Of a DNA stretch of 64,000 nt, positions 3,621 to 36,740 are shown piece after piece. Origin of the DNA: Panorpa germanica (taxonomy: Eukaryota > Arthropoda > Insecta > Mecoptera > Panorpidae); assembly GCA_963678705.1 (NCBI GenBank), contig OY783206.1, forward strand, positions 19,789,807 through 19,853,806. The letters run 5' to 3'. The notes below the pieces were generated by a model. That model was not told the origin of the DNA. It saw only the letters and a list, made by a program, of their open reading frames with translations, and made no database searches. The position numbers and the translations under genes were made by a program. The stretch's first letter is position 1. Each line of letters starts with the position of its first letter.

Positions 3621-5315
3621 ATGGAATATTATACAATAAAATCAGTTAGCTGTTCTAGACAATATTTGTGGCGAATTACAGATTCAATTCGCCAAAGTGC
3701 TCTAATAGAAATATTTTTTATATTTCTATTTCTAATACTAAACAATATCAGTATATTTAACCCCGTAACATCAATCTTAAATATATTAGGCAAATGCTAT
3801 TCTTGGGTAGTTATTTTTTATTTCCTCGCTCAACTATTACTAGTATTTGCTGTTGGTGTTATTTATGGCAAAGAATATATCTCTAAAAGTGTTGCAGTCC
3901 GTAATATATCAAGATTTAGAAAGACTTTTGGATTGTTCCAGACACACAACCTCGGAAAATGTATTGTGACAGTTATGCTTGGATTTACTTCATTTATTTT
4001 GTGTATGACACTCACAGAAGGGTTCTATCCGAATTCTAAAACCCCTTGCCTTAATGGGGGGCGCTTATATTGTATCGTGGAAGAACGATACTTCTACATA
4101 TTAGCTGGACCTTTTTGTGGTGTCTACTTCTTTTTAAAACACTATTTTGCAGACAATTTTATACGTTTCCCTGTAATACAACAAAAAGTGTTTGTCCAGC
4201 TGAAATCTAGCATTAATGTTCTCGCGAAAGAGAGCCTAAACGGTGCTTTTAAAGTGTGCCTTTACTACTTAATTTTTTATTTCATATTCGGTAGCTATAT
4301 CAACAACAATTTGCAGTATATCCTGGATGCAGGAGTGAGCGACACACCGTTGCACAAAATATACAAACTTTTAAATCCATTTTTAATCATACATTTACTT
4401 AAATTTAGTTTCGTTTTCTTATTTACAATGAATTTTATAAAAAGAATGTTTGTTATTAACATAACACAGAATTTACAGTTTCCTATCGATGAAAATGATA
4501 CCCCGGAAAACGGTATCATGCTTAAAGATGCTTTTAAATCAGATTCTCCAATTCTGCGAAGCCTTGCCTTTCAAGATTTGTTCATTTTATCGGAAAATCA
4601 ACCTGAGAGACGTGTTCAAATATTCACAATTTCGATTCCTGGAGGACATGGCCATAACTGGAAGAATATTTCAGAACCGTGCTTGAGTTTGATCAACTCA
4701 TTTATTGACAACATCCACAAACTAAGTGCAAACGCTAATACAGCAAAACCTACGGATGTGCGATACAACCGACGAAATCTTGTTAATGAACTAAAACTGA
4801 AACGATCTACAGAACTATATAATATCTTTGCATCTCCTGGAGATAATTCTGAGCAAGAAAACATCGAGAAGAGTATTCTCATCAAGCTTAAAGAGAAATT
4901 ATTCGCTGTGTATCTTGTAAACTACATTTTTGGAGATGTTAATTACAATAATTTGAGAGTAATTACAACGGAATCTCAGAATGTTGTGTGGGCCACTAGG
5001 AGTTTAGCAAATTTACTAAGCGTTTCGTTAACAGAAGATCGGTATGGCGTAACACACGAAGATTTTGAAAAAGTCGTTACTATTATATTGAAATTAAGAC
5101 AGGCTTTAAATATTTTGAATTTGTTGATTATGGATTATAATAAGGGTAACAATCAGAAGACCCCTGAAGGGAGGATTAAGTTGTCGATTGAAACTAATGT
5201 TAGGAGCTGCTTGTATTTGATTTCAGAGACCTATAAACCATATTTCCAAAGCTTGAGTTTGTCTGATGAAACTAGGAAGCAGCTTAAAAACTTTGCTTTG
5301 TGGAACGAAGGATAA
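3621..5315 (+). CDS. Ndc1: Nucleoporin NDC1, intronless, nested in NOS intron
   Basis: 564-residue integral membrane nucleoporin that anchors the nuclear pore complex in the nuclear envelope and helps pore insertion. About six hydrophobic segments are visible (roughly residues 27-46, 61-82, 112-130, 148-166, 209-229, 255-276), followed by a soluble C-terminal half carrying the family motif (about residues 312-355) with LAFQDLFILSE, an RR pair and PGGHGHNW. Length fits insect NDC1. The start is the first methionine, before a basic patch and the first membrane segment. A single uninterrupted exon, antisense to NOS; either a retrocopy that became the working gene or an ancestral intronless locus. 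A polyadenylation signal lies at 5463. Confidence 0.88.
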   Translation: MEYYTIKSVSCSRQYLWRITDSIRQSALIEIFFIFLFLILNNISIFNPVTSILNILGKCYSWVVIFYFLAQLLLVFAVGVIYGKEYISKSVAVRNISRFRKTFGLFQTHNLGKCIVTVMLGFTSFILCMTLTEGFYPNSKTPCLNGGRLYCIVEERYFYILAGPFCGVYFFLKHYFADNFIRFPVIQQKVFVQLKSSINVLAKESLNGAFKVCLYYLIFYFIFGSYINNNLQYILDAGVSDTPLHKIYKLLNPFLIIHLLKFSFVFLFTMNFIKRMFVINITQNLQFPIDENDTPENGIMLKDAFKSDSPILRSLAFQDLFILSENQPERRVQIFTISIPGGHGHNWKNISEPCLSLINSFIDNIHKLSANANTAKPTDVRYNRRNLVNELKLKRSTELYNIFASPGDNSEQENIEKSILIKLKEKLFAVYLVNYIFGDVNYNNLRVITTESQNVVWATRSLANLLSVSLTEDRYGVTHEDFEKVVTIILKLRQALNILNLLIMDYNKGNNQKTPEGRIKLSIETNVRSCLYLISETYKPYFQSLSLSDETRKQLKNFALWNEG

Positions 5316-19997: not shown

Positions 19998-20446
19998 ACC
20001 AGAATACATAAGAGACAAAGATACAAGAAACATGAGAAGAATCGCAAGATTTAGATTAGGAAACGAAGAGAAGAGAAACAGATACTGGGCAAATAGAGAG
20101 GAATGGATGTGTATGGTGTGCGGAACGCAGATAGAAATGTTGGAGCACATTTAGTTTTCATGTGAGAAAAAGGTAGATAGTGAAAAGAATATTGTGCAGT
20201 TATTAAAGAGAGGCAGTGAAGGGAAGAAGTGGATGATGGAGATAAGAAAGAGAAGGAATAGATGAGTAGAAGCAGGAGGGAGAGTAGCAGAAAGAGGGAA
20301 ACAGTAGGGGTTTAAATTTATCTTTTTTTGTTTTTATTTTTTATTTTGGAAGGAGTGAGAATGGTTAGATATAACAAGAATCACAAATGTACTTAAGCAC
20401 AATTATATGTAATTTAAGACAGAAGAACGTAGTAAAATAATAAATA
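19998..20446 (+). mobile_element. 5'-truncated LINE, 3' end of RT protein
   Basis: Flanked by a 15-bp target duplication (19983-19997 and 20447-20461, GTGGCATTTCATAAT), so a true insertion. The plus strand reads RRIARFRLGNEEKRNRYW and a zinc-knuckle-like C-x2-C ... H-x4-C segment broken by a TAG, then a 3' UTR ending in a short A/T-rich repeat. This is the C-terminus of a Jockey/R1-like non-LTR retrotransposon. Confidence 0.85.
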
Positions 20447-23899: not shown

Positions 23900-24064
23900 T
23901 AAATTTTAAATCTATAATAAGGGCATTATTCTGTATGTTATTTTCAGCGGTGATAAAATTTCATCGCTGAATAATAACGTAACACGACTCTTATGACAGG
24001 AATGGTCATATGACGTCACTATTTACTGATGAAATTTTATCAACGCTGAAAATAACATACAGAA

Positions 24065-24171
24065 TGTAATGATTCTAGTAGTATGTCTGAAATCTAGTAG
24101 TATTAGATTTCATTATTATGATACAAAAACAAAATATCACTAGTCAAATTATATCTGATTAAAGCTTGTAG
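24065..24171 (+). repeat. 5' LTR of self-priming element, left piece
   Basis: Begins TGTAATGATTCTAGTAG and contains at 24147-24163 the 17 nt complementary to the primer site at 31748-31764. In Tf1 this would be the transcript 5' end; by analogy transcription starts near 24147. Interrupted at GTAG by the errantivirus; the remainder of this LTR is 31716-31746. Confidence 0.88.
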
Positions 24172-24408
24172 TGTTACCACGCGTGCCAGCTCTAAAGGCC
24201 ACCCAATATATCCCCTTATCTAATCTAAACATCCTGGGATAGAATTACAATTAAGTTAGTATATAAGTAACCATGTAATCTCGGACCACCAGTCTTACTC
24301 CAACCTCTGAATTGCCAGAAGGTCTTGTAATAAATATATTAATAAAATAATTGTTTAAAGTTAATTAAATTGTTTTTTTTATTAACTTCAGTAAATCAAA
24401 AGTTAATT
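24172..24408 (+). repeat. Errantivirus 5' LTR
   Basis: 237 bp starting TGTTACCACGCG and ending AAAAGTTAATT. TATATAAG at 24260-24267 is a likely TATA box and CCAGTCTTAC near 24289 an initiator; AATAAA at 24329 would serve for polyadenylation in the 3' copy. Confidence 0.92.
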
Positions 24409-24418
24409 GGCGCAGTCG
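24408..24418 (+). promoter_or_regulatory. Errantivirus primer-binding site (tRNA-Ser type)
   Basis: TGGCGCAGTCG, complementary to the 3' end of a serine tRNA whose acceptor begins GCAGTCG, as in 17.6 and 297. It overlaps the last LTR base by one. Confidence 0.85.
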
Positions 24419-24616
24419 GTAGGATATTAAGAAATTACAAATCGCTGTAAATTTTTCCATTTTAATGGATTAACTTAATAATTCGAAAACCTACACAATA
24501 ATACAGTTAAACTTAATAAATAGTTAAAGTGAAAATAAATAAATAAGTGAGTGAGTGAAATAATAAAAAAGGAACACGGGAGCACAAGACATACAACTAG
24601 ACGACCTGGAATCATC

Positions 24617-24648
24617 ATGCTTCTAGAACTGGCTGTAATGATCTCAAT
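24617..24648 (+). CDS. env: Predicted env leader exon
   Basis: A short open frame with an ATG at 24617 in the untranslated leader upstream of gag, running 10 codons plus 2 nt to a consensus donor CAAT|GTGAGT (GT at 24649-24650). The hydrophobic leucine/valine/isoleucine content suits the start of a secretion signal. Its phase matches the acceptor at 29779/29780 exactly. Subgenomic spliced env mRNA is known for errantiviruses; the pairing here is inference. Confidence 0.65.
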
Positions 24649-24747
24649 GTGAGTACCATTTTCAAGTATCCCTTCTTTTATTATTCCCTCTGATAATTAA
24701 ATAATACATAAATATAAGAATATTGAAGAAAAAATATATACATTATA

Positions 24748-25851
24748 ATGGCGTATAACACATTTATATCGTACATTAAAGAATTCAACGGAGACAATTC
24801 ACTATCAACGTTCTTACAAAGTTTTGATAACATGATTAAGAAATTTGCTTTACCGGATATTCCTGCAAACGCTGCAGACAACGCGTTACTATTACTTGCA
24901 ATAAAAAGTAAAATTGTTGGAAAAGCAAACGCATTAATAGAGTATAGAAACACCCATACTTGGGATGACTTAAGAGCTATACTAATATCGAACTACAATG
25001 AAAACAAATCGGAAACGACATTAACAAGAGAACTGATGTTACTCCGGCAAAGAGGAGATACTGCAATGATCTTTTACGACAAATGCAACAAAATCAGAAA
25101 TGATTTATATAATGTAGCACAAATTGAAGGATTAGACTCCCTAGTGAAGATTCATAAACTAAAATTATATGATAACTTAACACTAGAAGCCTTTTTGACT
25201 GGTCTTAATGAACCATTAGGATCACAACTCAGAGTTCAGAATATTACAAAAATGGAGGAGATTCTAAAAATAATCATGAGAGAAGACACTCTAAAAACAA
25301 ATAGAATTCAACAACTGAAACTGATGGGTGATATACCTAAACAATTTTACCCTCAGAGACCTCCACCCCAAAGACCACAATATAGATCATCATACCACCC
25401 TCAAAATAATTATAATCCACCACAACAAACATCTCAAAGTAAATCATGGTATCCCAACCAAAATAATTATAACCCATCTCAACAAAATAGACCACCCTAC
25501 TCAAACCAAAGAGCTGAACCATCAACCTCTTATCAACCTTTTAAAAAGCCTCAATCTCAACAAACGAAGCAAACGAATGTTTGGAACAAAAAACCCCAAA
25601 TGCCCATTCGAAAACATTGGACTCCTATGGATACAACTTCCACGGTCAGACCAACCAACAACTGGAAGCCAACTTTTAGTACACCAGGCTTAAACTATGT
25701 AGCCGAAGAATTAAATAACATAGAAGGAGAGTTCGAAGAAGAGCAAGAATATGAAAGAGTTGAAGAAAATGAAGAATATTATGCATATGAAAACCAAGAG
25801 GAAAATACTCAGGATTTTCTCGAACACCTGGGACCCACAGAGAACATATAG
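24748..25851 (+). CDS. gag: Errantivirus Gag
   Basis: 367 residues. The N-terminal two thirds is a helical capsid-like domain (about residues 1-195) typical of Gypsy-group Gag. It is followed by a Pro/Gln/Asn-rich region (about 200-310) with repeated NNYNP motifs and an acidic Glu/Tyr-rich tail. There is no CCHC zinc knuckle, as in many errantiviruses. The frame ends TAG at 25849 and overlaps pol by about 60 nt in the -1 frame. Confidence 0.92.
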   Translation: MAYNTFISYIKEFNGDNSLSTFLQSFDNMIKKFALPDIPANAADNALLLLAIKSKIVGKANALIEYRNTHTWDDLRAILISNYNENKSETTLTRELMLLRQRGDTAMIFYDKCNKIRNDLYNVAQIEGLDSLVKIHKLKLYDNLTLEAFLTGLNEPLGSQLRVQNITKMEEILKIIMREDTLKTNRIQQLKLMGDIPKQFYPQRPPPQRPQYRSSYHPQNNYNPPQQTSQSKSWYPNQNNYNPSQQNRPPYSNQRAEPSTSYQPFKKPQSQQTKQTNVWNKKPQMPIRKHWTPMDTTSTVRPTNNWKPTFSTPGLNYVAEELNNIEGEFEEEQEYERVEENEEYYAYENQEENTQDFLEHLGPTENI

Positions 25852-28800
25852 TACTAAATAACATTCAACATGACTCTCTGCCTTACATAATAGATCCAGT
25901 ACTAAATATAAAACTCTTATTAGATACAGGCAGCAACAGAACAATTATAAATCCAAAACTAGCATACACCACCATACCAGAAATGATAGAAAATGAAATT
26001 TTCACCATCAAAACTGCACATGGAACTACGAAACACAACCAAGTAGCTCATGTACAAACATTTCCAGTATTTAATTCGGAAAATAAATGTAAAATGTATT
26101 TATTTAGATTTAACAAAAAATATGACGGCCTTATAGGCTCTGATCTATTAAATACAGAAAAAGCAAAAATCGATTTTGAAAACAAACAATTGATTACAGA
26201 AAAAGCTATTATACCTATTTATTTCCAAGATGCTTGCGACACACAAATACATGAGATACAAATAAGAAATGAACATATGAATCGTGAAGAGAAACATCAA
26301 TTATGTGAACTCTTAAAAAACTACCCTGACCTCTTTAGAGAAAACCATGAAAAACTCAGCTTCACGAATCATATCAAACACAAGATTACCACCACCAACG
26401 AAGACCCTATTTATAGTAAGAACTATAGATATCCTTACGTCCATAAGAACGAAATTAATAGTCAAATTGAAAAACTATTAAATGACGAAATAATTAAACC
26501 ATCTAATTCACCCTGGTCTTCACCCGTCTGGATCGTACCTAAGAAAGACGATGCCAGTGGAAAGAAAAAATTTAGAATGGTGATCGATTATAGAAACCTG
26601 AATAATAAAACAGTGGATGATAGATACCCTATCCCGAACATCTCTGAAATCTTAGACAAGTTAGGTAGAAGTCAATACTTCACTACCCTTGACTTAGACT
26701 CAGGATTCCACCAGATCGAAGTAGATGAACAAGACATAAAGAAAACAGCATTCAACGTCGAGAACGGTCACTATGAGTTTACTAGAATGCCGTTTGGACT
26801 CAAAAGCGCACCAGCCACTTTTCAAAGGGTCATGGACGATGTACTAAGAGATCTAGTACCAAACACATGTCTTGTATATCTCGACGATATACTTATATAT
26901 TCCACCTCCTTACAAGAACACATGGAGAAACTAAGAAATGTACTTGATAGGCTCAGAAAAGCGAATCTTAAGATTCAAATAGATAAATCCGAATTCCTCA
27001 AGAAAGAAACGGAATTTCTGGGACACGTCGTTACACCAGAAGGCGTTAAACCAAACCCTAACAAGGTACATGCAATCAAAACATTTCCTATACCAAAAAC
27101 AGTGACAGAAATAAAATCATTTTTAGGACTCGTTGGTTACTATCGCAAATTTATACAAGACTTCGCGAAATTAACCAAACCTATGACAAAATATTTGAAG
27201 AAAGGTACAACAATCACACACACGGAAGAATTTGTCAAATCTTTTGAACTAATGAAAAACATCTTGAGCAATGCACCCCTGTTACAATACCCTGATTTCA
27301 GCAAAGAATTCAAACTTACAACTGATGCATCCAACTATGCAATAGGCGGTATATTATCGCAAGGTAATACCGGCTCTGATAAACCAATAGCGTACGCATC
27401 CAGAACTCTAAACGAATCAGAACAGAATTACTCAGCTATAGAAAAAGAACTATTAGCTTTAGTATGGGCAACTAAATATTTCAGACCATATCTATATGGA
27501 AGAAAATTTACCCTGATCACAGACCATAAACCTTTGGTGTGGCTTGATTCGCTCAAAGAACCAAACATGAAACTAATCAGATGGAAAATCAAATTGTCTG
27601 ATTATGACTACAAAATAGAGTATAAGAAAGGATTAGAAAACACCAACGCAGATGCATTAAGCCGTATCAAATTAAATGCATTAGACAACGATAATGTGAG
27701 CATTATTAATAATCCTGACTTTGATACTAGATGGGAAGAACTCATCGCAGAAATAGATGATGTACTTAAGGAAAATACCAACACCCCTACACCCACAACT
27801 CTACGTACAGAAACCCCTATAACAACTGTGAATAATAATGAACCAACGGATATACTAAATACACCAGTACCAACACCGATCCCCAATGACCCTATAGAAA
27901 TCAATAAGGAATCAGAAATAATCGAAATAAGCGATACAGATACCATACACTCGCAAGAAGATTCTAACACCGGAATACCCATAACAACTGATCCTTTGGA
28001 AACCAAGAAAAACCAAATAATTATTACTCAAACTCTCGGAAAAACAACAAGCAAAATACGAAAAATAGACAACAAGCAACAAATACATCTTGAAATACAT
28101 CAAGACCATATTCATCAAGAACTATTTATCCTCACGTTAGAAAAACTTGACCCAGATATAACATACTACCTTTTCTGTGACAATGAAATATACGAAATTT
28201 ATAATAAATTGAAAATTGAAACATTTATTCGTTATAAGATAATAAGATGCTTAAACCGAGTTGATATTATAACTGAATTAGAAGACCAACTCTATATTAT
28301 ACTACAAATACACGAAGGGAAGACCCACCATAGAGGCATTGACACCACACGAAAAATGATTCAAGAACGATACACCTGGAGCGGTATGAAAAAGCAAGTA
28401 GAGAATTATATTAACAATTGTCTCACTTGTAAACAACAAAAATACAATCGACATCCGATACAAGGACCACTCAAAATCACGGAAACACCGGAAAAACCAT
28501 TCGAAAAAATATACATTGATACTTTCGAAGTAGACGGACAGAAATTTCTAACTATAATAGATTCATTTTCCAAATACGCACAGGCATATGACATCATAGC
28601 TAGAACAGCAATAGAAGTAACAGAAAAACTATTGACCTATTTCACCCATCATGGCATACCCAAACAAATAACCATGGATGGCGGTGCAGAATTTAATAAT
28701 AACATCATTAAAGAATTACTAAATCTACACAAAATAGAAATGCATATAACTACACCCTATCGTCACGAAAGTAACGCCCCTGTAGAAAGACTACATTCTA

Positions 28801-29747
28801 CTTTACTTGAAATGTACAGAATCGTGAAAACAGAACACGATCTTCCCCCAAGACTACTTATGAAGTACACCCTTATAGGATACAATGAGACACCTCATTC
28901 CACCACCCAGTACAAACCTCGGGAACTAATAAACGGACATCTATGTACTAAATCACCTTTACTATTAAACCAAGATATGACACTTATGGATCTTTACATG
29001 CAGAACCATCGAGACCGAACTACGAAAATATATGAACAAGTTAAAAACCAAATACAACAGAAGAAAGAACAAACTATAAATCGTATAAATAAAGACATTC
29101 CTAAACCAAAAGTGAAACCTACTGATATAGTGTATTTAAATAAGAAAATTAAAAACCAAACCAAAAGTAAACCAAAAAACACAGGACCATATGAAGTCTT
29201 AGAAGTATCAGATAAGAATATAGCTACGATTAAACACCTTAAAACACACGTCACTAGAACTAATCATTTAGACAACCTAATGACAACCCCACTCAAAGTA
29301 AAATCAGTACTTCAGATAGAAAACGGAAAACTTCCTTCGAACGAAAAAACCGATTTCATTCTACACCTAGTACATGATCGTTACACGTTAAAAGACAACG
29401 AGCCCTCACACTACCAAGGATTCGCCAAACTAATAGCTTTGGACACACCATATTATGAATTTATACTAAATAAAGAAAAACGTATAAAAAACCTGAAAAA
29501 AGGTCTCTACACCATAACCGAAAGAAAAACATTCGGCAAAACTATTAATATAGTATGTAATAAAGAAAATTGTTTAGAGAAACTAAAATCATTCCTAACT
29601 CTCTTTGAAAAAGAACCAATGGTATACACCATCAGAATGCCAGCCATAGGGCAAGGACTTTTCAAACGAACCAAAGATGAAATTGAAACCGTATTTTCAA
29701 ACCACGGTACATCAAAACATACATATATAATGCATAAAATAGAGTGA
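25791..29747 (+). CDS. pol: Errantivirus Pol (PR-RT-RNaseH-IN), by -1 frameshift
   Basis: The frame is open from 25791, before the first ATG at 25983, and only that upstream part holds the protease motif LLDTGS (25917-25934), so translation must come from gag by -1 shifting in 25791-25851. Counting from 25983: RT with YLDD at about 299, RNase H with TTDAS at about 446, integrase HHCC zinc finger about 776-816, and DDE residues near 846, 899 and 935. A Thr/Pro-rich spacer lies between RNase H and IN. The C-terminus continues about 150 residues past the integrase. No stop or frameshift damage seen. Confidence 0.92.
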   Translation, partial: KPRGKYSGFSRTPGTHREHIVLNNIQHDSLPYIIDPVLNIKLLLDTGSNRTIINPKLAYTTIPEMIENEIFTIKTAHGTTKHNQVAHVQTFPVFNSENKCKMYLFRFNKKYDGLIGSDLLNTEKAKIDFENKQLITEKAIIPIYFQDACDTQIHEIQIRNEHMNREEKHQLCELLKNYPDLFRENHEKLSFTNHIKHKITTTNEDPIYSKNYRYPYVHKNEINSQIEKLLNDEIIKPSNSPWSSPVWIVPKKDDASGKKKFRMVIDYRNLNNKTVDDRYPIPNISEILDKLGRSQYFTTLDLDSGFHQIEVDEQDIKKTAFNVENGHYEFTRMPFGLKSAPATFQRVMDDVLRDLVPNTCLVYLDDILIYSTSLQEHMEKLRNVLDRLRKANLKIQIDKSEFLKKETEFLGHVVTPEGVKPNPNKVHAIKTFPIPKTVTEIKSFLGLVGYYRKFIQDFAKLTKPMTKYLKKGTTITHTEEFVKSFELMKNILSNAPLLQYPDFSKEFKLTTDASNYAIGGILSQGNTGSDKPIAYASRTLNESEQNYSAIEKELLALVWATKYFRPYLYGRKFTLITDHKPLVWLDSLKEPNMKLIRWKIKLSDYDYKIEYKKGLENTNADALSRIKLNALDNDNVSIINNPDFDTRWEELIAEIDDVLKENTNTPTPTTLRTETPITTVNNNEPTDILNTPVPTPIPNDPIEINKESEIIEISDTDTIHSQEDSNTGIPITTDPLETKKNQIIITQTLGKTTSKIRKIDNKQQIHLEIHQDHIHQELFILTLEKLDPDITYYLFCDNEIYEIYNKLKIETFIRYKIIRCLNRVDIITELEDQLYIILQIHEGKTHHRGIDTTRKMIQERYTWSGMKKQVENYINNCLTCKQQKYNRHPIQGPLKITETPEKPFEKIYIDTFEVDGQKFLTIIDSFSKYAQAYDIIARTAIEVTEKLLTYFTHHGIPKQITMDGGAEFNNNIIKELLNLHKIEMHITTPYRHESNAPVERLHSTLLEMYRIVKTEHDLPPRLLMKYTLIGYNETPHSTTQYKPRELINGHLCTKSPLLLNQDMTLMDLYMQNHRDRTTKIYEQVKNQIQQKKEQTINRINKDIPKPKVKPTDIVYLNKKIKNQTKSKPKNTGPYEVLEVSDKNIATIKHLKTHVTRTNHLDNLMTTPLKVKSVLQIENGKLPSNEKTDFILHLVHDRYTLKDNEPSHYQGFAKLIALDTPYYEFILNKEKRIKNLKKGLYTITERKTFGKTINIVCNKENCLEKLKSFLTLFEKEPMVYTIRMPAIGQGLFKRTKDEIETVFSNHGTSKHTYIMHKIE

Positions 29748-29779
29748 TAAAATAAAAAACAACAAAATCCTTGTTACAG

Positions 29780-31457
29780 GATCACCACTATCACGACTAC
29801 TACTACCAACGAATGCAAACTCCACAAAATCACAGACAATCCAGGACTCTACCCCATACAAAGAGGTACAGCCCAAAACATCAGAGAACACTGGACAATA
29901 ATTAAGAAAATTGATATGGAACCGTTAATAAAATATCATCAAAACGCTCATAACCTTAAGATATCAATGCAAGAACAAATAAAATATATAGAAAAACATT
30001 TACATGGCCATTCTACCGATATCCTAGATATCCTAGACTCGGAAATAAACAAGAAAATTCGACAAATATTACCTACAAGACGAAATAAACGAAGTATCGA
30101 CGCTATAGGTACTTTTTGGAAATACATAGGAGGAAATTTAGACCAAGAAGACGGGAAAAGAATAAACCTTGCACTCCAGACCTTAGAAGGAAACCAGCTA
30201 CAAATAAATAAAACTATTAATAAACAAATAAAATTAGCCAACACCATAACAGACGAGTTTAAACAAGCGCTAGAAACTCTCAACAAAAATCAAGAAAAAT
30301 CAAACGAACGGATTAAAACCCTAACAACTGCAATCAACCAAGCACAAGCAGTAAACATGAGACACATACTCATCACGGAATCAATCGGACTCATCGCCCA
30401 GTCCATGCAATTACTAATGCATCTACTGGAAAGAATTGAAAAAGATATTACCTTCGCTAGACTTAGAACAATTAGCGTATCCATCCTAGAACCCGGACAC
30501 CTACTAGGAGAACTTAAAGAAATAGAGAATTACCTCAATTCGACTGAACACATTAAACTACCCTTCAAAATAACGCTAGAAAACGTTCATACTTATGAAG
30601 AAATCAGTCAAGTGACAGCATATACACAACATGTGACTATTGTATTTGTAATAAAAATACCCCTTACCAACCCTAAAATATTCACATATTACGAAAACTA
30701 TCCATTACCAATACCATACTATAATCAATTCCAAATATTAATTCCTAAATCCAAATACCTACTTGTTAATGACTACTCACATATTGAATCAAATTCACCA
30801 TGCACTAAAATAAATAATAATCAATATTTATGCGAAATCAGAGAAACAATGAATACAGAACACACCTGCGAGACAGAACTCCTGAGAGGACAACCCCCAA
30901 CACAATGTCAACCCTTGACAATAGAACTAAAAGGACTGAAAATTCAGAACATCGACCCTAACACCTGGATCATCATTTCAAATGAAAAAATTAACAGCAC
31001 TCTACAATGCGAAGACACAAAGATGATGAACCTACAAGGAACCTATATATTAAACCTTGCAGATCAATGTAAACTTTATGTTTCAGGTAGAATAATTCAA
31101 CATATTAAGATTAAAGAAACTGTGGAAACCTGGAATCTGATGCCTTTACCTAGTGTACCCGAAATACAAAACAAACCCATCGACGCATCATTTACCATGG
31201 AACACTTAGATCTACACAACATCGAGAAACTACAACATACTCTAGCTCTACTACCAAGAGATCTCAAGATTAATGAACTACCCCATAATATACATATTAT
31301 ACACCCTATAATAACCCCATTTTTTATGACTATAATAATAACCATAATTATATACATAACATATAGATATTGTAAGAAAAATAAAAATAAAGAAATCAAT
31401 ATAATTGAACCATTAGACACAGAGAATCATACACCTTTTGCTACTTTTACAGCATAA
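29780..31457 (+). CDS. env: Errantivirus Env (baculovirus F-like fusion protein), main exon
   Basis: The open frame extends upstream of the ATG at 29916 to the acceptor TTGTTACAG|G (exon from 29780), and this upstream part is protein-like, so the ATG is not the true start. Counting from 29916, a furin-type RNKR site at residues 56-59 is followed by a fusion-peptide-like hydrophobic Gly/Ile segment, coiled-coil rich regions, paired cysteines, and one membrane segment near 463-484 with a short basic cytoplasmic tail. Acts as a membrane fusion glycoprotein in infectious insect retroviruses. No damage visible. Needs a spliced leader for a signal peptide. Confidence 0.88.
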
Positions 31458-31469
31458 AGTTGTATCTTC

Positions 31470-31478
31470 GGTGGGAGA
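31470..31478 (+). promoter_or_regulatory. Errantivirus polypurine tract (weak)
   Basis: GGTGGGAGA immediately before the 3' LTR, the expected place for plus-strand priming. It contains one pyrimidine. Confidence 0.6.
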
Positions 31479-31715
31479 TGTTACCACGCGTGCCAGCTCT
31501 AAAGGCCACCCAACATATCCCCTTATCTAATCTAAACATCCTGGGATAGAATTACAATTAAGTTAGTATATAAGTAACCATGTAATCTCGGACCACCAGT
31601 CTTACTCCAACCTCTGAATTGCCAGAAGGTCTTGTAATAAATATATTAATAAAATAATTGTTTAAAGTTAATTAAATTGTTTTTTTTATTAACTTCAGTA
31701 AATCAAAAGTTAATT
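31479..31715 (+). repeat. Errantivirus 3' LTR
   Basis: 237 bp, identical to the 5' LTR except CAACATATCC in place of CAATATATCC. Followed directly by the target duplication GTAG and the rest of the host element's LTR. Confidence 0.93.
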
Positions 31716-31746
31716 GTAGAAGTGAATCTTGAGTATTATTATTACA
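31716..31746 (+). repeat. 5' LTR of self-priming element, right piece
   Basis: GTAGAAGTGAATCTTGAGTA through ATTATTACA, identical to the end of the 3' LTR (35561-35591), proving the LTR was split by the errantivirus. Confidence 0.9.
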
Positions 31747-31747
31747 T

Positions 31748-31764
31748 TTTAATCAGATATAATT
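31748..31764 (+). promoter_or_regulatory. Self-complementary primer-binding site
   Basis: TTTAATCAGATATAATT, one base after the LTR end, is the perfect 17-nt reverse complement of LTR positions 24147-24163 (and of 35540-35556 with its copy). It lacks the TGG start of any tRNA-primed site. Matches the arrangement in Tf1, where the 5' end of the transcript folds back as primer. Confidence 0.85.
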
Positions 31765-31768
31765 CCAA

Positions 31769-34700
31769 ATGTCGAATCCTCTAAAACCGGAAAAATTTCA
31801 AACAGATCCAAATTCAAATACTGCAACAAGAGAATGGATATATTGGTTGAAAACTTTCGAAAATTATCTGGAAACCATAGAAAATCCTGATTCATTGAAA
31901 CTCCTGGTAAATCATATTTCTTTTAGTATATACGAATATATAGCTGACTGCAAAACGTATGAAAATGCCATTAACGCCCTTCGACTAATTTATGAAAAAC
32001 CAATAAATGAAATTTACGCTCGACACTTACTAGCCACGAGACGGCAACAACCGAATGAAACACTGGATACATATTTAAGAAGCCTCAGACAACTAGCAAA
32101 TGATTGTAATTTTAAAGCTGTAACTTTGGAGACCAATAGGGATGAGTTTATAAGAGACAGTTTTATAAATGGTGTAATTTCTACAACTATTAGACAACGA
32201 TTGTTAGAAAATATTACCCTAACGCTACAAGTTGCCTATGATCAGGCACGAGCTATGGAAGATGCTCAACTCCATTCTCAGTCTTACGATACTTCTGTAC
32301 ACAGTACGAATGCTGTTTTACAGGAAAACATTATCATCAAGAAACAGATGCCAGAAAATGATGTTATAGTAGCTGCCGCATCTCAAAAATGTTATTTTTG
32401 TGGGAATATTAAGCACAACAGAAACGTTTGTCCTGCTAAAGAATCCATATGTAGAAAATGTGGAAAGGTAGGGCATTATGCAAAAGTATGTCGATCCTCC
32501 TCTACGTTATCTAAAGGAGAAACTACTTCTCCTAAACGATTATCAGCAATAACATCTGTTGCTACATGTAAACAGTTATCTTCTGCTATAACTACAATTA
32601 AGATGGATGGTATACTCACTGACGCTTTAATAGATACTGGAAGCTCTGAAAGCTTTATCAATGCGGATTTAGCAAATCAGAGGAAACTAAAAGTTATCCC
32701 TTGTACTGGAAATGTCTACATGGCTTCTACATCATTACAGTCAAGTATATTTGGATACTGTAATGTAGAAATAGAAATGTTAGGGAATATATATAAAGGA
32801 ATCAAGCTATCGGTAATGAAAGAATTATGTACCGATATTATATTAGGAAATGATTTCCTCAAGCAACATAACTCAGTGTGCATAAAATTTGGAGGGATCA
32901 AATCTGATCTAAATATTTGTGGATTAACTTCCATCAAGATATCTTCCCCATCATTATTCGCTAATTTGACTCCTGATTGTCGGCCAATAGCTATAAAATC
33001 AAGACGCTATAGTGAAGCTGATAAGAAATTTATCAAGGCTGAAATAGAAAAATTGCTCAAGAAAGGAATTATAGAAACTAGTGATTCTCCATGGCGAGCA
33101 CAAGTTTTAGTCACATCTAATGAACATCACAAGAAACGCATGGTAATTGATTATTCTAGAACAATTAATCGATTCACTCTTTTGGACGCCTACCCACTAC
33201 CCAAAATAGACGAAATTGTTGGTAAGGTTGCTAAGTATAATATATTCAGTACTCTTGATTTGAAAAGCGCCTACCATCAAGTTTTAATAAAGAAAGAAGA
33301 AAGAAAGTATACGGCATTCGAGGCTTGCAATAATCTATACCAATTTCGTCGCATACCTTTTGGAGTAAATAATGGTGTAGCCAGTTTTCAAAGAACTATT
33401 GATAAGATAATACAAGCAGAAAATCTTAAAGATACTTACGCTTACATTGACGATGTAACTGTTTGTGGACATACTCAGGAAGAACATGATAAAAATTTAC
33501 AGAAATTTCTTAATGCAGCAAAGAAATTTGGCATAACATTAAATGCAGAGAAATGTACTTACTCCGTAACTACAATCAATCTATTAGGATATACTATAAC
33601 AAATAAAACGATTAAACCGGATTCTGATCGACTTAAACCCTTAGAAAATTTACAACCTCCTTTAGATATAGCATCTTTACGTAGGATTATTGGATTATTT
33701 GCATATTACTCTAAGTGGATACCTAATTTTTCAAAGAAAATTCAGCCACTAGTACAAAATAAATCCTTCCCAATGACTCCTGACCTAATAGAAGCTTTCG
33801 AAAATTTGAAAAATGATGTTAGGAACTCTTTAGTGATGGCTATAGAAGATAACGTTCCCTTTGTTGTAGAAAATGACGCTTCTGATAAAGCTATCGCTGC
33901 TACACTAAACCAGTCTGGAAGACCAATTGCTTTCTTTTCAAGAACATTGTCAGCAAGTGAGAGAAGACATTCAGCAATTGAAAAAGAAGCATATGCTATC
34001 GTTGAATCATTAAGGAAATGGAGACATTATCTTATAGGAAATCGATTTCAATTAGTTACTGACCAAAAGTCAGTATCATTTATGTTTAATAATAAAAGGG
34101 CTGGTAAAATTAAAAATGACAAAATAATGAGATGGCGACTTGAGTTATCATGTTACAACTACGAAATAATTTACCGTCCAGGAAAAGATAATCTAGCAGC
34201 TGATACTTTTTCCAGAATATGTGGCTTTACCTCAGGATATCAAAATTTCTCAAGGTACTGTGGTACTACTACACCAAACGATACACTAATCAATCTACAT
34301 AAATATCTATGTCATCCTGGAGTTACAAGGATGGCGCATTACATACGATGCCGAAATCTACCTTACTCTGTAGAGGAAATTAAAAAAATGACAGCTTCAT
34401 GTAAAGTATGTGCAGAACTGAAACCCAGATTTCATAAAAATGATTCAGGGAAACTTATTAAAGCTACTTCCCCTTTCGAACGACTAAGCATAGACTTTAA
34501 AGGGCCAATACCATCAGCTACAAGAAACAAATACATGCTAACAATTATAGACGAATATTCTAGATTTCCCTTTGCTTTTCCATGTTCTGATATGACGTCA
34601 TCTACTGTGAAGAAATGCCTTCAAAATGTATTTGATATCTTTGGCATGCCTTCCTTTATACATTCAGATAAAGGATCTTCATTCATGTCACAGGATTTAA

Positions 34701-35359
34701 AAGTCTACTTACATGCCAGAGGAATTGCTACTAGCAATACTACTCCCTACAACCCTCAAGGGAATGGACAAGTTGAACGATATAATGGCATTATTTGGAA
34801 AGCGGTAACATTATTATTAAAATCGACAGATACGCCAATTACGCAATGGGAAACAGTACTCAACACAGCTTTACATTCCATACGATCTCTGTTATGTACT
34901 GCTACCAATGCAACTCCACACGAACGTATGTTTACTCATCAACGTAAATCGTTAAGTGGTATTTCTATACCGACATGGCTAACCACTCCAGGCACTGTTC
35001 TAATGAAAAAGATGGTGCGAAACAGCAAATATGATCCATTGGTAGAAGAAGTGGAATTAATTGAAGCTAATTCAGAATATGCTCATGTTAAATTAGCAGA
35101 TGGAAGAGAGAGTACAATATCAGTTCGCCATTTGGCTCCTCGAGGAAGCGACATATTGTCAGAAAAATCTAATCTTCAAATGTCTGATGAAGAAGACGAA
35201 GGAAATATAACGCTACACCCACCAGAAACTACACCGATAGAAGATTTTAGACAAGAACCTGTTACAAATCCTTCTAACGATGACATACCCATTGTAAAGA
35301 AACCTCCCGAGCGAAACAGACGTCCACCGCCCCATCTTGCAGACTACGTACAACACTAA
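31769..35359 (+). CDS. gag-pol: Self-priming element Gag-Pol, single frame
   Basis: 1196 residues in one uninterrupted frame. Order: capsid-like Gag (about 1-190), two CCHC zinc knuckles (about 208-242), protease LIDTGSS (about 287), RT with FGVNNG and YIDD (about 559), RNase H with ENDASD (about 700), integrase HHCC finger (about 847-881) and DDE residues near 909, 967 and 1001, then a Pro/Glu-rich tail. Single-frame Gag-Pol is also the Tf1 arrangement, although the protein looks like animal K02A2.6-type Gypsy elements. All catalytic residues are present. Confidence 0.92.
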   Translation: MSNPLKPEKFQTDPNSNTATREWIYWLKTFENYLETIENPDSLKLLVNHISFSIYEYIADCKTYENAINALRLIYEKPINEIYARHLLATRRQQPNETLDTYLRSLRQLANDCNFKAVTLETNRDEFIRDSFINGVISTTIRQRLLENITLTLQVAYDQARAMEDAQLHSQSYDTSVHSTNAVLQENIIIKKQMPENDVIVAAASQKCYFCGNIKHNRNVCPAKESICRKCGKVGHYAKVCRSSSTLSKGETTSPKRLSAITSVATCKQLSSAITTIKMDGILTDALIDTGSSESFINADLANQRKLKVIPCTGNVYMASTSLQSSIFGYCNVEIEMLGNIYKGIKLSVMKELCTDIILGNDFLKQHNSVCIKFGGIKSDLNICGLTSIKISSPSLFANLTPDCRPIAIKSRRYSEADKKFIKAEIEKLLKKGIIETSDSPWRAQVLVTSNEHHKKRMVIDYSRTINRFTLLDAYPLPKIDEIVGKVAKYNIFSTLDLKSAYHQVLIKKEERKYTAFEACNNLYQFRRIPFGVNNGVASFQRTIDKIIQAENLKDTYAYIDDVTVCGHTQEEHDKNLQKFLNAAKKFGITLNAEKCTYSVTTINLLGYTITNKTIKPDSDRLKPLENLQPPLDIASLRRIIGLFAYYSKWIPNFSKKIQPLVQNKSFPMTPDLIEAFENLKNDVRNSLVMAIEDNVPFVVENDASDKAIAATLNQSGRPIAFFSRTLSASERRHSAIEKEAYAIVESLRKWRHYLIGNRFQLVTDQKSVSFMFNNKRAGKIKNDKIMRWRLELSCYNYEIIYRPGKDNLAADTFSRICGFTSGYQNFSRYCGTTTPNDTLINLHKYLCHPGVTRMAHYIRCRNLPYSVEEIKKMTASCKVCAELKPRFHKNDSGKLIKATSPFERLSIDFKGPIPSATRNKYMLTIIDEYSRFPFAFPCSDMTSSTVKKCLQNVFDIFGMPSFIHSDKGSSFMSQDLKVYLHARGIATSNTTPYNPQGNGQVERYNGIIWKAVTLLLKSTDTPITQWETVLNTALHSIRSLLCTATNATPHERMFTHQRKSLSGISIPTWLTTPGTVLMKKMVRNSKYDPLVEEVELIEANSEYAHVKLADGRESTISVRHLAPRGSDILSEKSNLQMSDEEDEGNITLHPPETTPIEDFRQEPVTNPSNDDIPIVKKPPERNRRPPPHLADYVQH

Positions 35360-35373
35360 AGAGGCTGGAAGAA
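35360..35373 (+). promoter_or_regulatory. Polypurine tract of self-priming element
   Basis: AGAGGCTGGAAGAA directly before the 3' LTR; purine-rich with a CT interruption. Confidence 0.6.
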
Positions 35374-35591
35374 TGTAATGATTCTAGTAGTATGTCTGAA
35401 ATCTAGTAGTGTTAATGTAATGATTCTAGTAGTATGTCTGAAATCTAGTAGTGTTAATGTAATGATTCTAGTAGTATGTCTGAAATCTATTAGTATTAGA
35501 TTTCATTATTATGATACAAAAACAAAATATCACTAGTCTAATTATATCTGATTAAAGCTTGTAGAAGTGAATCTTGAGTATTATTATTACA
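35374..35591 (+). repeat. 3' LTR of self-priming element, with triplicated 42-bp unit
   Basis: 218 bp against 134 bp for the reconstructed length of the 5' LTR. The difference is exactly two extra copies of a 42-bp unit beginning TGTAATGATTCTAG (35374, 35416, 35458). The rest matches the 5' LTR at all but about two positions. Confidence 0.92.
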
Positions 35592-35631
35592 CAGAATATG
35601 ACCCTAAATGTAAGTAATGCAGTATTTGAAC

Positions 35632-35723
35632 CTTATGTTTCCTTTGTTGGTGCTGTACTTGATGTGGTTGCAGATGGCTTCAAACATTCCACTGGTCGTC
35701 GTCACGTAGCGACAATCGAAAAC
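35632..35723 (-). CDS. NOS: NOS exon: after heme cysteine
   Basis: 92 bp, phase 0 in and 2 out, TTTTCCAG acceptor. Reads [20 protein letters not shown] and ends KGNI plus two bases, joining in phase to SAITIFPQ. The donor AAG|GTTCAA departs from consensus after GT. Only 27 bp separate this exon from the end of transposon k1. Confidence 0.93.
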
Positions 35724-36090
35724 CTGGAAAATTAAAAACAGAAATTAAAATTAATTCGTTTTCGAATTAAATTTTTTAATATTTTTTAAAATTCAGAAAA
35801 ATTTCGTTTAAAAATTATTACGTTTTCGAAAATGGTGGTTGGGGTTATGTATTAAATAAACATGAAAGTAGAAACGTCATCTCATTATAAAGTTAAAGTA
35901 CCTCCAACGTAAAAAGTTTATCCCTCGGTAATACGAAATATGAAATATAGGACAAACATTTTCGAGACTGTACATGTGAAAATGAATTTTAAAATTTTCA
36001 ATTTTTTTCAAAGAATTTTTTGTCTTTTACAATTATTTCTTGATGTTTCTTGATTTCCTATAATTAATGTTAAATTCATATTAATTCAAT
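35724..36090. other. NOS intron, no recognised feature
   Basis: AT-rich; nothing supportable. Confidence 0.5.
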
Positions 36091-36740
36091 GGGCCTGTGT
36101 CCTCATTTTTTAGTGATCGATTTTTCAATTGTTGATTGAAATTGATGTTAATAAATGTGTATTGGCGTATCTATTTTATTAAATATCTAAATGTTGACGG
36201 AGATATAGCAATTAAAAATTTGAATTGTAGTTTTAGCGCTATGAGATGGTCGACCATATTTGTATGACGTGAAATACATTTTAACGTCAGTTATTTGTTG
36301 AGTAGGTCAGAGCTGTGGTAATGTTTTGTAGCTGTTGGTAGTTAAATAATCAAATCAAATCAAAAAATAATATGTCTTTATTTTATTTAACCCTGTTATG
36401 GCAGATATAATATTGAAATTTCATTGTTCCTTGAAATAGCTGTAAATAATATTTGATATTTTGATATATAAATACATATAGCAGAGATTTATGAGCTGTA
36501 AGGTTGGTAACCTGTAAACTTGTCAGAGTTCTGTCAAGAATATATCTCTGCTACGCGCTGAGGTAGCAACATAGCGAATGTGAGGTCACATGTCTTGGAA
36601 TGTTGTACAACGTTGAATTATTAATATTTCCTAACATATAATGACTTATTAGACAATAATAGGGCATTTGAGGTTCTAGTAACCAACTTTATCGGTACGT
36701 AGTACACTTTTATAGAAATTAAGACATAGGACACAAGTAT
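36091..36740 (+). repeat. Family a MITE, copy a7
   Basis: Forward copy from GGGCCTGTGTCCTCATTTTTT to GGACACAAG; the last bases of the right terminus have decayed to TATG. Confidence 0.85.

What the first reader, a model, noticed from the sequence alone, without database searches (positions are those of the whole stretch)
31747..31764. Tf1-like self-priming in an animal Gypsy-class retrotransposon
The 17 nt starting one base after the 5' LTR are a perfect reverse complement of a stretch inside the same LTR (24147-24163 and 35540-35556). The site does not begin TGG and fits no tRNA. In fission yeast Tf1 and vertebrate/fungal sushi-type elements, the transcript's own 5' end folds back to prime reverse transcription. 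Here the protein looks like the animal K02A2.6-type Gypsy lineage, so self-priming may have arisen independently or been overlooked in insects. The single Gag-Pol frame is a further Tf1 parallel.
Basis: partly seen in the sequence, partly recalled or inferred. Interest (0 to 1): 0.88.

Follow-up and report, generated by a model that had tools for sequence, protein, structure and literature searches.

The report
Animal retrotransposon that primes itself
A jumping gene in what looks like an insect genome seems to start copying its RNA into DNA from the folded-back front end of that RNA instead of borrowing a cellular tRNA, a trick known from fission-yeast and related elements but seen here in a separate animal lineage.

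Summary
31748-31764 is an exact 17-nt reverse complement of 24147-24163 and 35540-35556, beginning one base after the 5' LTR of a Gypsy-class element (TG..CA LTRs, 5-bp target duplication, one intact 1196-aa gag-pol frame). The 5' LTR is split by a younger errantivirus-like insertion. The only relative whose DNA I could obtain (L001, 51% protein identity) has the same arrangement: a perfect 14-nt inverted repeat at the same +1 offset. Of 14 pairs compared, 11 are identical, 3 changed on both sides and none is broken. In both elements the LTR arm ends in ATTAAA, a polyadenylation-signal hexamer. Self-priming is therefore the best explanation (about 0.8), but not Tf1/sushi membership: no chromodomain, a separate RT clade, and no extra Tf1 'pretzel' duplexes. 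Clade relatives occur in insects, crustaceans, molluscs, nematodes and cnidarians. Main gaps: the RNA 5' end is unmapped, host tRNAs were not tested, other genomic copies could not be read (the genome tool did not complete in 17 tries), and only two elements have DNA. A bolder reading, not excluded: one stem both primes reverse transcription and hides the 5' poly(A) signal.

The parts
24060..24064 (.). target-site duplication CAGAA of the self-priming element (left)
   Evidence: same five bases at 35592-35596
24065..24171 (+). 5' LTR of the self-priming element, first part (starts TGTAATG)
   Evidence: 105 of 107 bases equal to the 3' LTR
24147..24163 (+). LTR arm, inferred self-primer: AATTATATCTGATTAAA
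24158..24163 (+). ATTAAA, inferred polyadenylation signal at the 3' end of the primer arm
   Evidence: sequence; the same ATTAAA ends the LTR arm in L001; function inferred
24172..31715 (+). younger errantivirus-like element (gag, pol, env; TGG-type primer site) inserted in the 5' LTR; GTAG duplication at 24168-24171 and 31716-31719
31720..31746 (+). 5' LTR of the self-priming element, second part (ends TATTACA)
   Evidence: 31728-31746 equal to the 3' LTR in 19 of 19 bases
31747..31747 (+). one-base spacer between LTR and primer-binding site
   Evidence: same one-base offset in L001
31748..31764 (+). primer-binding site, exact reverse complement of the LTR arm
31769..35359 (+). single gag-pol frame, 1196 aa: zinc knuckles (weak), protease, RT, RNase H, integrase
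35358..35373 (+). purine-rich tract before the 3' LTR, inferred plus-strand primer
   Evidence: sequence; inferred
35374..35591 (+). 3' LTR, 218 bp, with three 42-bp units where the 5' LTR has one
35540..35556 (+). second copy of the LTR arm
35592..35596 (.). target-site duplication CAGAA (right)

Best explanation
This is a Gypsy-class LTR retrotransposon of an animal clade without chromodomains that starts reverse transcription from its own RNA. Shown: the 17 nt beginning one base after the LTR exactly complement a stretch 36 nt upstream within the same LTR (counted without the insertion), and a diverged relative keeps this with matched changes. Inferred: transcription starts at or near 24147; the first 17 nt fold back on the primer-binding site; the RNase H of the element's RT (as in Tf1) cuts after the ATTAAA; the new 3' end is extended through U5. 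The short cDNA then jumps to the 3' LTR copy, which is possible because the poly(A) signal lies in the primer and the 3' end of the RNA therefore lies beyond the cut, leaving a stretch of shared R. When the plus strand copies the RNA primer it rewrites the primer-binding site, which would explain why the complementarity is perfect and why it should end at the RNA's 5' end.
For: Exact 17-nt complement at the position where a primer site must lie. L001, 51% identical in protein, has a perfect 14-nt pair, LTR arm 372-385 and 437-450, also one base after a TG..CA LTR. Of 14 pairs compared, 11 are the same, 3 changed on both sides, 0 broken. L001's leader folds into this stem (z -2.33, 5 of 200 shuffles as stable). 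No TGG at the LTR end, and no tRNA family among the 4 Rfam matches at E<=5 in 23900-36100. The inserted element in the same window has a TGG-type site and no such pairing. Weaker: of 205 clade proteins screened, four are annotated with 21 or more residues upstream of Gag. All four read N-L-[IFL], as a complement of A[AT]TAAA would; the motif was noticed after looking, and shuffling each extension gives 0.178 (P0034), 0.090 (P0077), 0.130 (P0023) and 0.071 (P0024). P0034 and P0077 also have N-K-A near their start, as AATAAAGC would be read.
Against: Only two elements have DNA. The RNA 5' end is unknown, and by eye L001 has no TATA-like sequence about 30 nt before its arm. The extra duplexes that Tf1 needs are not found: the best stems are 5 and 6 bp, reached by 996 and 941 of 1000 shuffles. 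Pairing energy alone is not striking (18 of 500 and 61 of 500 shuffles). A free search for complementarity in the four extended proteins is not significant in any of them (information score reached by 80, 340, 73 and 361 of 500 shuffles for P0034, P0077, P0023, P0024; by run length 69, 415, 93, 420). Proteins with shorter extensions (for example P0130, P0305, P0018, P0251) lack the motif. Host tRNAs were not tested.
Confidence: 0.8

Rival explanations
1. The stem is an RNA switch that hides the 5' poly(A) signal, so that only the 3' LTR signal is used, as proposed for the HIV-1 poly(A) hairpin (recalled). Priming is by some other RNA.
For: In both elements with DNA the LTR arm ends in ATTAAA. 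The complementary arm follows only the 5' LTR, so the 3' copy of the signal is free.
Against: A masking stem need not start exactly one base after the LTR, the place defined by the first copied base, yet both elements have that offset. No TGG-type primer site is seen there. The pairing runs 11 nt (window) and 8 nt (L001) beyond the six-base signal.
Confidence: 0.08
2. A cellular RNA other than the 3' end of a tRNA (a tRNA half as in some Copia elements, or a small RNA) primes, and the LTR match is secondary.
For: Half-tRNA priming is reported for some Copia lineages (PMC6317226 passages). Host tRNAs could not be checked, as the genome search did not complete.
Against: The outer part of the site differs between the window element and L001 while each matches its own LTR (3 of 14 pairs changed on both sides), which a shared host RNA does not explain. 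No tRNA family match near the site.
Confidence: 0.06
3. A true member of the Tf1/sushi chromovirus group.
For: Same kind of primer site; single gag-pol frame.
Against: No Chromo or SH3_Tf2-1 domain at E<=1, where Chromo is found in 4 of 4 and SH3_Tf2-1 in 3 of 4 chromodomain-bearing controls. In the RT-RNase H tree the clade is cut off from all 8 chromodomain rows used by a branch with support 100 and length 1.72. No pretzel duplexes.
Confidence: 0.02
4. A chance or palindrome-derived match in AT-rich DNA.
For: The window is AT-rich and has real hairpins (12 of 20,000 random positions reach 14 nt).
Against: A second, diverged element repeats it at the same offset with both-sided changes.
Confidence: 0.03

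Closest known systems
Tf1/sushi group of chromoviruses (Tf1, Tj1, Tosmo; fungi, vertebrates, non-seed plants)
   Same: primer-binding site after the 5' LTR complementary to the 5' part of the element's own RNA; some have a single frame (passages of PMC10085805 and PMC4600332)
   Different: here no chromodomain, a separate RT clade, none of the two extra duplexes, a longer primer match (17 nt against 11 nt in Tf1, recalled), and a primer that ends in a poly(A)-signal hexamer
TAR lineage of plant Copia and Tcn1 chromoviruses (predicted self-primers)
   Same: met by the same rule: at least 10 bp complementary to the LTR, starting 0-5 bp after it (PMC6317226 passages)
   Different: Copia class or chromodomain class, from plants and fungi; for one Tcn1 element, SM-Tcn1, an earlier paper found neither a tRNA site nor a self-primer (PMC2864245 passages)
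Mag lineage of animal Gypsy elements
   Same: animal, short LTRs, several with a single frame (PMC3286476 passages)
   Different: Mag elements in Culex have tRNA-Leu or tRNA-Ser sites, one tRNA-Arg; named Mag sequences were not in my tree
Fungal GalEa Copia elements with a Conserved Hairpin Site
   Same: no tRNA site; a hairpin at the LTR boundary (PMC5445492 passages)
   Different: both hairpin arms lie after the LTR, and the authors found no LTR complement

Membership tests
Gypsy/Ty3 LTR retrotransposon | protease, RT, RNase H, integrase in this order between LTRs | tested here: met
Gypsy/Ty3 LTR retrotransposon | TG..CA LTRs with a short target duplication | tested here: met
   CAGAA on both sides
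Self-primed LTR elements (functional class, rule of PMC6317226) | at least 10 bp complementary to the LTR, starting 0-5 bp after it | tested here: met
   17 nt at +1; 14 nt at +1 in L001
Self-primed LTR elements (functional class, rule of PMC6317226) | primer is the 5' end of the element's own RNA | not testable with these tools
   no RNA data; no 5' end mapped
Tf1/sushi chromoviruses | chromodomain after the integrase | tested here: not met
   no Chromo hit at E<=1; four chromodomain proteins as positive controls all hit
Tf1/sushi chromoviruses | RT groups with chromoviruses | tested here: not met
   clade cut off with support 100 from the 8 chromodomain rows used; no row was a named Tf1 or sushi
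Tf1/sushi chromoviruses | two further duplexes between U5 and bases next to the primer site | tested here: not met
   longest stems 5 and 6 bp, no better than shuffles
Mag lineage | primer site for tRNA-Leu or tRNA-Ser | tested here: not met
   no TGG at the LTR end; tRNA sequences themselves were not compared
Mag lineage | RT groups with Mag | not tested
tRNA-primed element | site complementary to a host tRNA | tested here: inconclusive
   no tRNA family match at the site, but the host's tRNAs could not be read (genome search did not complete)

The most novel reading that the evidence does not exclude
A whole animal clade of chromodomain-free Gypsy elements, from cnidarians to insects, has evolved self-priming apart from Tf1/sushi, with one RNA stem doing two jobs. 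The primer's 3' end is the poly(A) signal itself, so the fold both primes reverse transcription and silences the 5' copy of that signal, and each round of copying rewrites the primer site from the RNA's own 5' end.
Probability: 0.35. Interest if true: 0.78.

Novelty: new variant of a known kind. Interest (0 to 1): 0.62.

Why it matters
In the passages I could see, self-priming in Gypsy elements is tied to the Tf1/sushi chromoviruses and their plant and fungal kin. If an animal clade outside them does it too, it arose more than once or is much older than thought, programs that look for tRNA-type primer sites would miss this clade's sites, and these elements might escape silencing by tRNA fragments (inference). 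The overlap of primer and poly(A) signal is a simple testable design.

Tried and rejected
Other copies in the host genome: the genome search 'own' was asked 17 times with the same request and never answered, so copies, solo LTRs and host tRNAs could not be read.

More DNA of relatives: viral contigs gave no relative by protein or alignment, nor any match to two RT-motif patterns. A pattern of the two arms gave four contigs that are not relatives (best tblastn E 0.22). Genome contigs gave one, L001. phages gave two records, neither a retroelement by its match. plasmids gave 114 records, 20 listed; three of those (H3-H5) look like distant Gypsy sequence, and the listed rest are mostly annotated transposases. 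I looked for LTR pairs in two of them (L006, L007) as further controls and found none.

N-terminally extended proteins as a window on the leader: a hint only; no single case is significant by complementarity. Pretzel structure: not found. Rfam: only weak microRNA hits on the flanking inverted repeat. Papers: Levin 1995, Lin and Levin 1997 and Atwood-Moore 2006 are not held; Tf1 details are from passages in later papers or recalled. A first control on the inserted element used a boundary several nt off and was redone.

Full report
OBSERVATION. Bases 31748-31764 are the exact reverse complement of 24147-24163 and of 35540-35556; no other place in the window matches at up to two mismatches. The first is the stretch just after the 5' LTR of a Gypsy-class element; the other two are the same place in its two LTRs. 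The LTRs run TGTAATG...TATTACA. The left one begins at 24065 after CAGAA, and the right one ends at 35591 before CAGAA, so a 5-bp target duplication brackets a complete insertion. Between them lies one frame, 31769-35359, with zinc knuckles (weak), protease, RT, RNase H and integrase.

NESTING. The left LTR is split by a second, errantivirus-like element: LTRs 24172-24408 and 31479-31715, 236 of 237 bases equal, a 4-bp duplication GTAG, and gag, pol and an env of the Baculo_F/Gypsy type. Its own primer site begins TGGCGCAGTCGG, a tRNA-type site as I recall it. In its first 25 internal bases the longest match to its LTR is 6 nt, and at most 4 nt within the first 3 bases. It serves as an in-window negative control. 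The loop between the arms is 36 nt, counted from coordinates.

CHANCE. At 20,000 random window positions, a perfect inverted match of 14 nt or more to the preceding 217 nt, starting within 3 nt, occurred 12 times, and of 17 nt or more 8 times. The samples overlap and include real hairpins. Energy alone is a poor guide in such AT-rich DNA (18 of 500 and 61 of 500 shuffles pair as well).

A RELATIVE. Of 23 stretches that matched a pattern in the bacterial genome collection, one encodes a relative: L001, a 3949-base contig in a metagenome-assembled 'bacterium', which I take for a contaminant. Its first 145 bases recur at its end (99%), as expected for a tandem or circular form. Between the coding end and the next start codon lies an LTR that I read as 237-435 (TGTCATAA...CTACA); only one copy is present, so its ends rest on the TG..CA rule and the purine tract. 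One base after it begins TTTAATCAACAATA (437-450), the exact complement of TATTGTTGATTAAA (372-385). Pair by pair against the window, 14 pairs: 11 identical, 3 changed on both sides, none changed on one side, none broken. L001's leader folds into this stem (-19.6 kcal/mol; shuffles -13.8 with sd 2.5; 5 of 200 as good). In both elements the LTR arm ends in ATTAAA followed by G, that is, in a poly(A)-signal hexamer (its function is inferred).

HINTS FROM PROTEINS. Proteins are the only trace of the other relatives. I screened 205 clade proteins for annotated residues upstream of Gag. Twelve had no recognisable start motif; 13 had the motif after residue 8, of which three (P0035, P0247, P0286) look misplaced. 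Four have 21 or more upstream residues (P0024, P0023, P0034, P0077). All four contain N-L-[IFL], as AAT-TTA-[AT]T[TC] or AAT-TTA-TTA would be read, i.e. a complement of A[AT]TAAA. I noticed the motif after looking; in shuffles of each extension it occurs in 18% (P0034), 9% (P0077), 13% (P0023) and 7% (P0024). P0034 and P0077 also have N-K-A near their start, as AATAAAGC would be read, and in these two the highest-information stem is the predicted one. But a free search for complementarity is not significant in any of the four (information score reached by 80, 340, 73 and 361 of 500 shuffles for P0034, P0077, P0023, P0024). Shorter extensions (for example P0130, P0305, P0018, P0251) show no such motif. 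I treat this as a hint that the primer site mirrors the poly(A) signal across the clade, with the AATAAA form matched by TTTATT.

THE CLADE. The search with residues 1-1000 gave 1350 matches at E<=0.001, best 120 listed; not all 1350 need belong to the clade. Named hosts in the list are Armadillidium, Loxostege, Macrosiphum, Hyposmocoma, Pieris, Ischnura, Biomphalaria, Actinostola and Trichuris; Periplaneta, Pycnogonum and Myxine appear in the second search. In an RT-RNase H tree of 47 rows (quick method, SH-aLRT support) the window element lies with the 14 relatives that I chose and one row that I had filed as 'other' (P0148), on a branch with support 100 and length 1.72. The 8 chromodomain rows, the 19 remaining other rows, three more rows and the errantivirus-like element lie outside. 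Long branches are present elsewhere in that tree. Among the 16, P0034 and P0023 come off first in an unresolved fork; the window element groups with P0003 and P0073 (Macrosiphum; 93), and L001's protein (P0118, identical to the L001 frame in 1162 of 1162 residues) with P0110 of a sea anemone (100). So the window element and L001 lie well apart within the clade. No named Tf1, sushi, Mag or Cigr-1 sequence was available; the clade may be one already listed under another name (for example one of the Cigr, Tor or MolGy clades named in PMC6238403, passages).

MECHANISM. Shown: position, complementarity, matched change, absence of a TGG site. Inferred: the RNA begins at or near 24147. The pairing stops there, and a self-copied primer site should end where the RNA ends. 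The 17-nt end folds over the 36-nt loop onto the site. RNase H cuts after ATTAAA, and the RT extends into U5. The 3' end of the RNA should lie some 10-30 nt beyond ATTAAA (general knowledge of poly(A) sites), so the short cDNA shares R with the 3' LTR and can jump. Tf1 uses a primer at the 5' end of its own mRNA paired to a site after the LTR (passages of PMC10085805 and PMC4600332; the original papers were not held), but Tf1 adds two duplexes that I do not find.

RIVAL WITH MERIT. The stem would also bury the 5' poly(A) signal, while the 3' signal, which has no primer site downstream, stays free. The two roles are compatible. The exact one-base offset from the LTR in both elements favours priming as the primary role, since the end of the LTR is set by the first base copied.

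NOVELTY. Passages of PMC6317226 describe self-priming in Tf1/sushi and predict it for Tcn1 and the Copia TAR lineage; the passages name no chromodomain-free Gypsy lineage. PMC10085805 calls it a common feature of the Tf1/sushi group. The titles and abstract beginnings listed (20 of 143 listed; 20 of 424; 15 of 16; 20 of 22), and the passages I read, do not describe it in a chromodomain-free animal Gypsy clade. The library is open-access only, I read passages and no whole paper, and Repbase-type notes were not seen. Hence 'new variant of a known kind' rather than a categorical novelty.

LIMITS. No RNA data, one DNA relative, no host genome, no host tRNA test. The host is inferred to be an insect from the errantivirus-like element and the nearest named relative; it was not identified.

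Noticed in passing
window 24172-31715: A nearly pristine errantivirus-like element (gag, pol, env with Baculo_F/Gypsy domains, LTRs 236 of 237 bases equal) is inserted inside the other element's LTR with a GTAG duplication.
   Followed up: partly
window 23928-24065: A 61-nt inverted repeat (85% complementary, 16 nt between the arms) looks like a small hairpin transposon; the self-priming element inserted at its right end. Rfam gives weak microRNA hits there, probably false.
   Followed up: partly
window 35374-35500: The 3' LTR has three 42-bp units where the 5' LTR has one, although the compared rest of the two LTRs is nearly identical.
   Followed up: no
window 3621-5315: Intact 564-aa frame matching the nuclear pore protein family Ndc1_Nup.
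   Followed up: no
L006 (NZ_CP087956.1): 'Plasmid unnamed3' of the Wolbachia of Corcyra cephalonica (5332 bases) carries protease, RT and RNase H-like genes and matches residues 410-1058 of the window's gag-pol at 31%; probably a moth retroelement. A Bacillus licheniformis 'plasmid' (L007) also matches, at 24%.
   Followed up: partly
L001 (JAAESD010000556.1): A contig of a bacterial MAG looks like an animal retrotransposon unit with overlapping ends.
   Followed up: yes
window 28813-28913: ARAGORN calls a tRNA-Tyr on the minus strand inside the pol frame of the errantivirus-like element; probably false.
   Followed up: no
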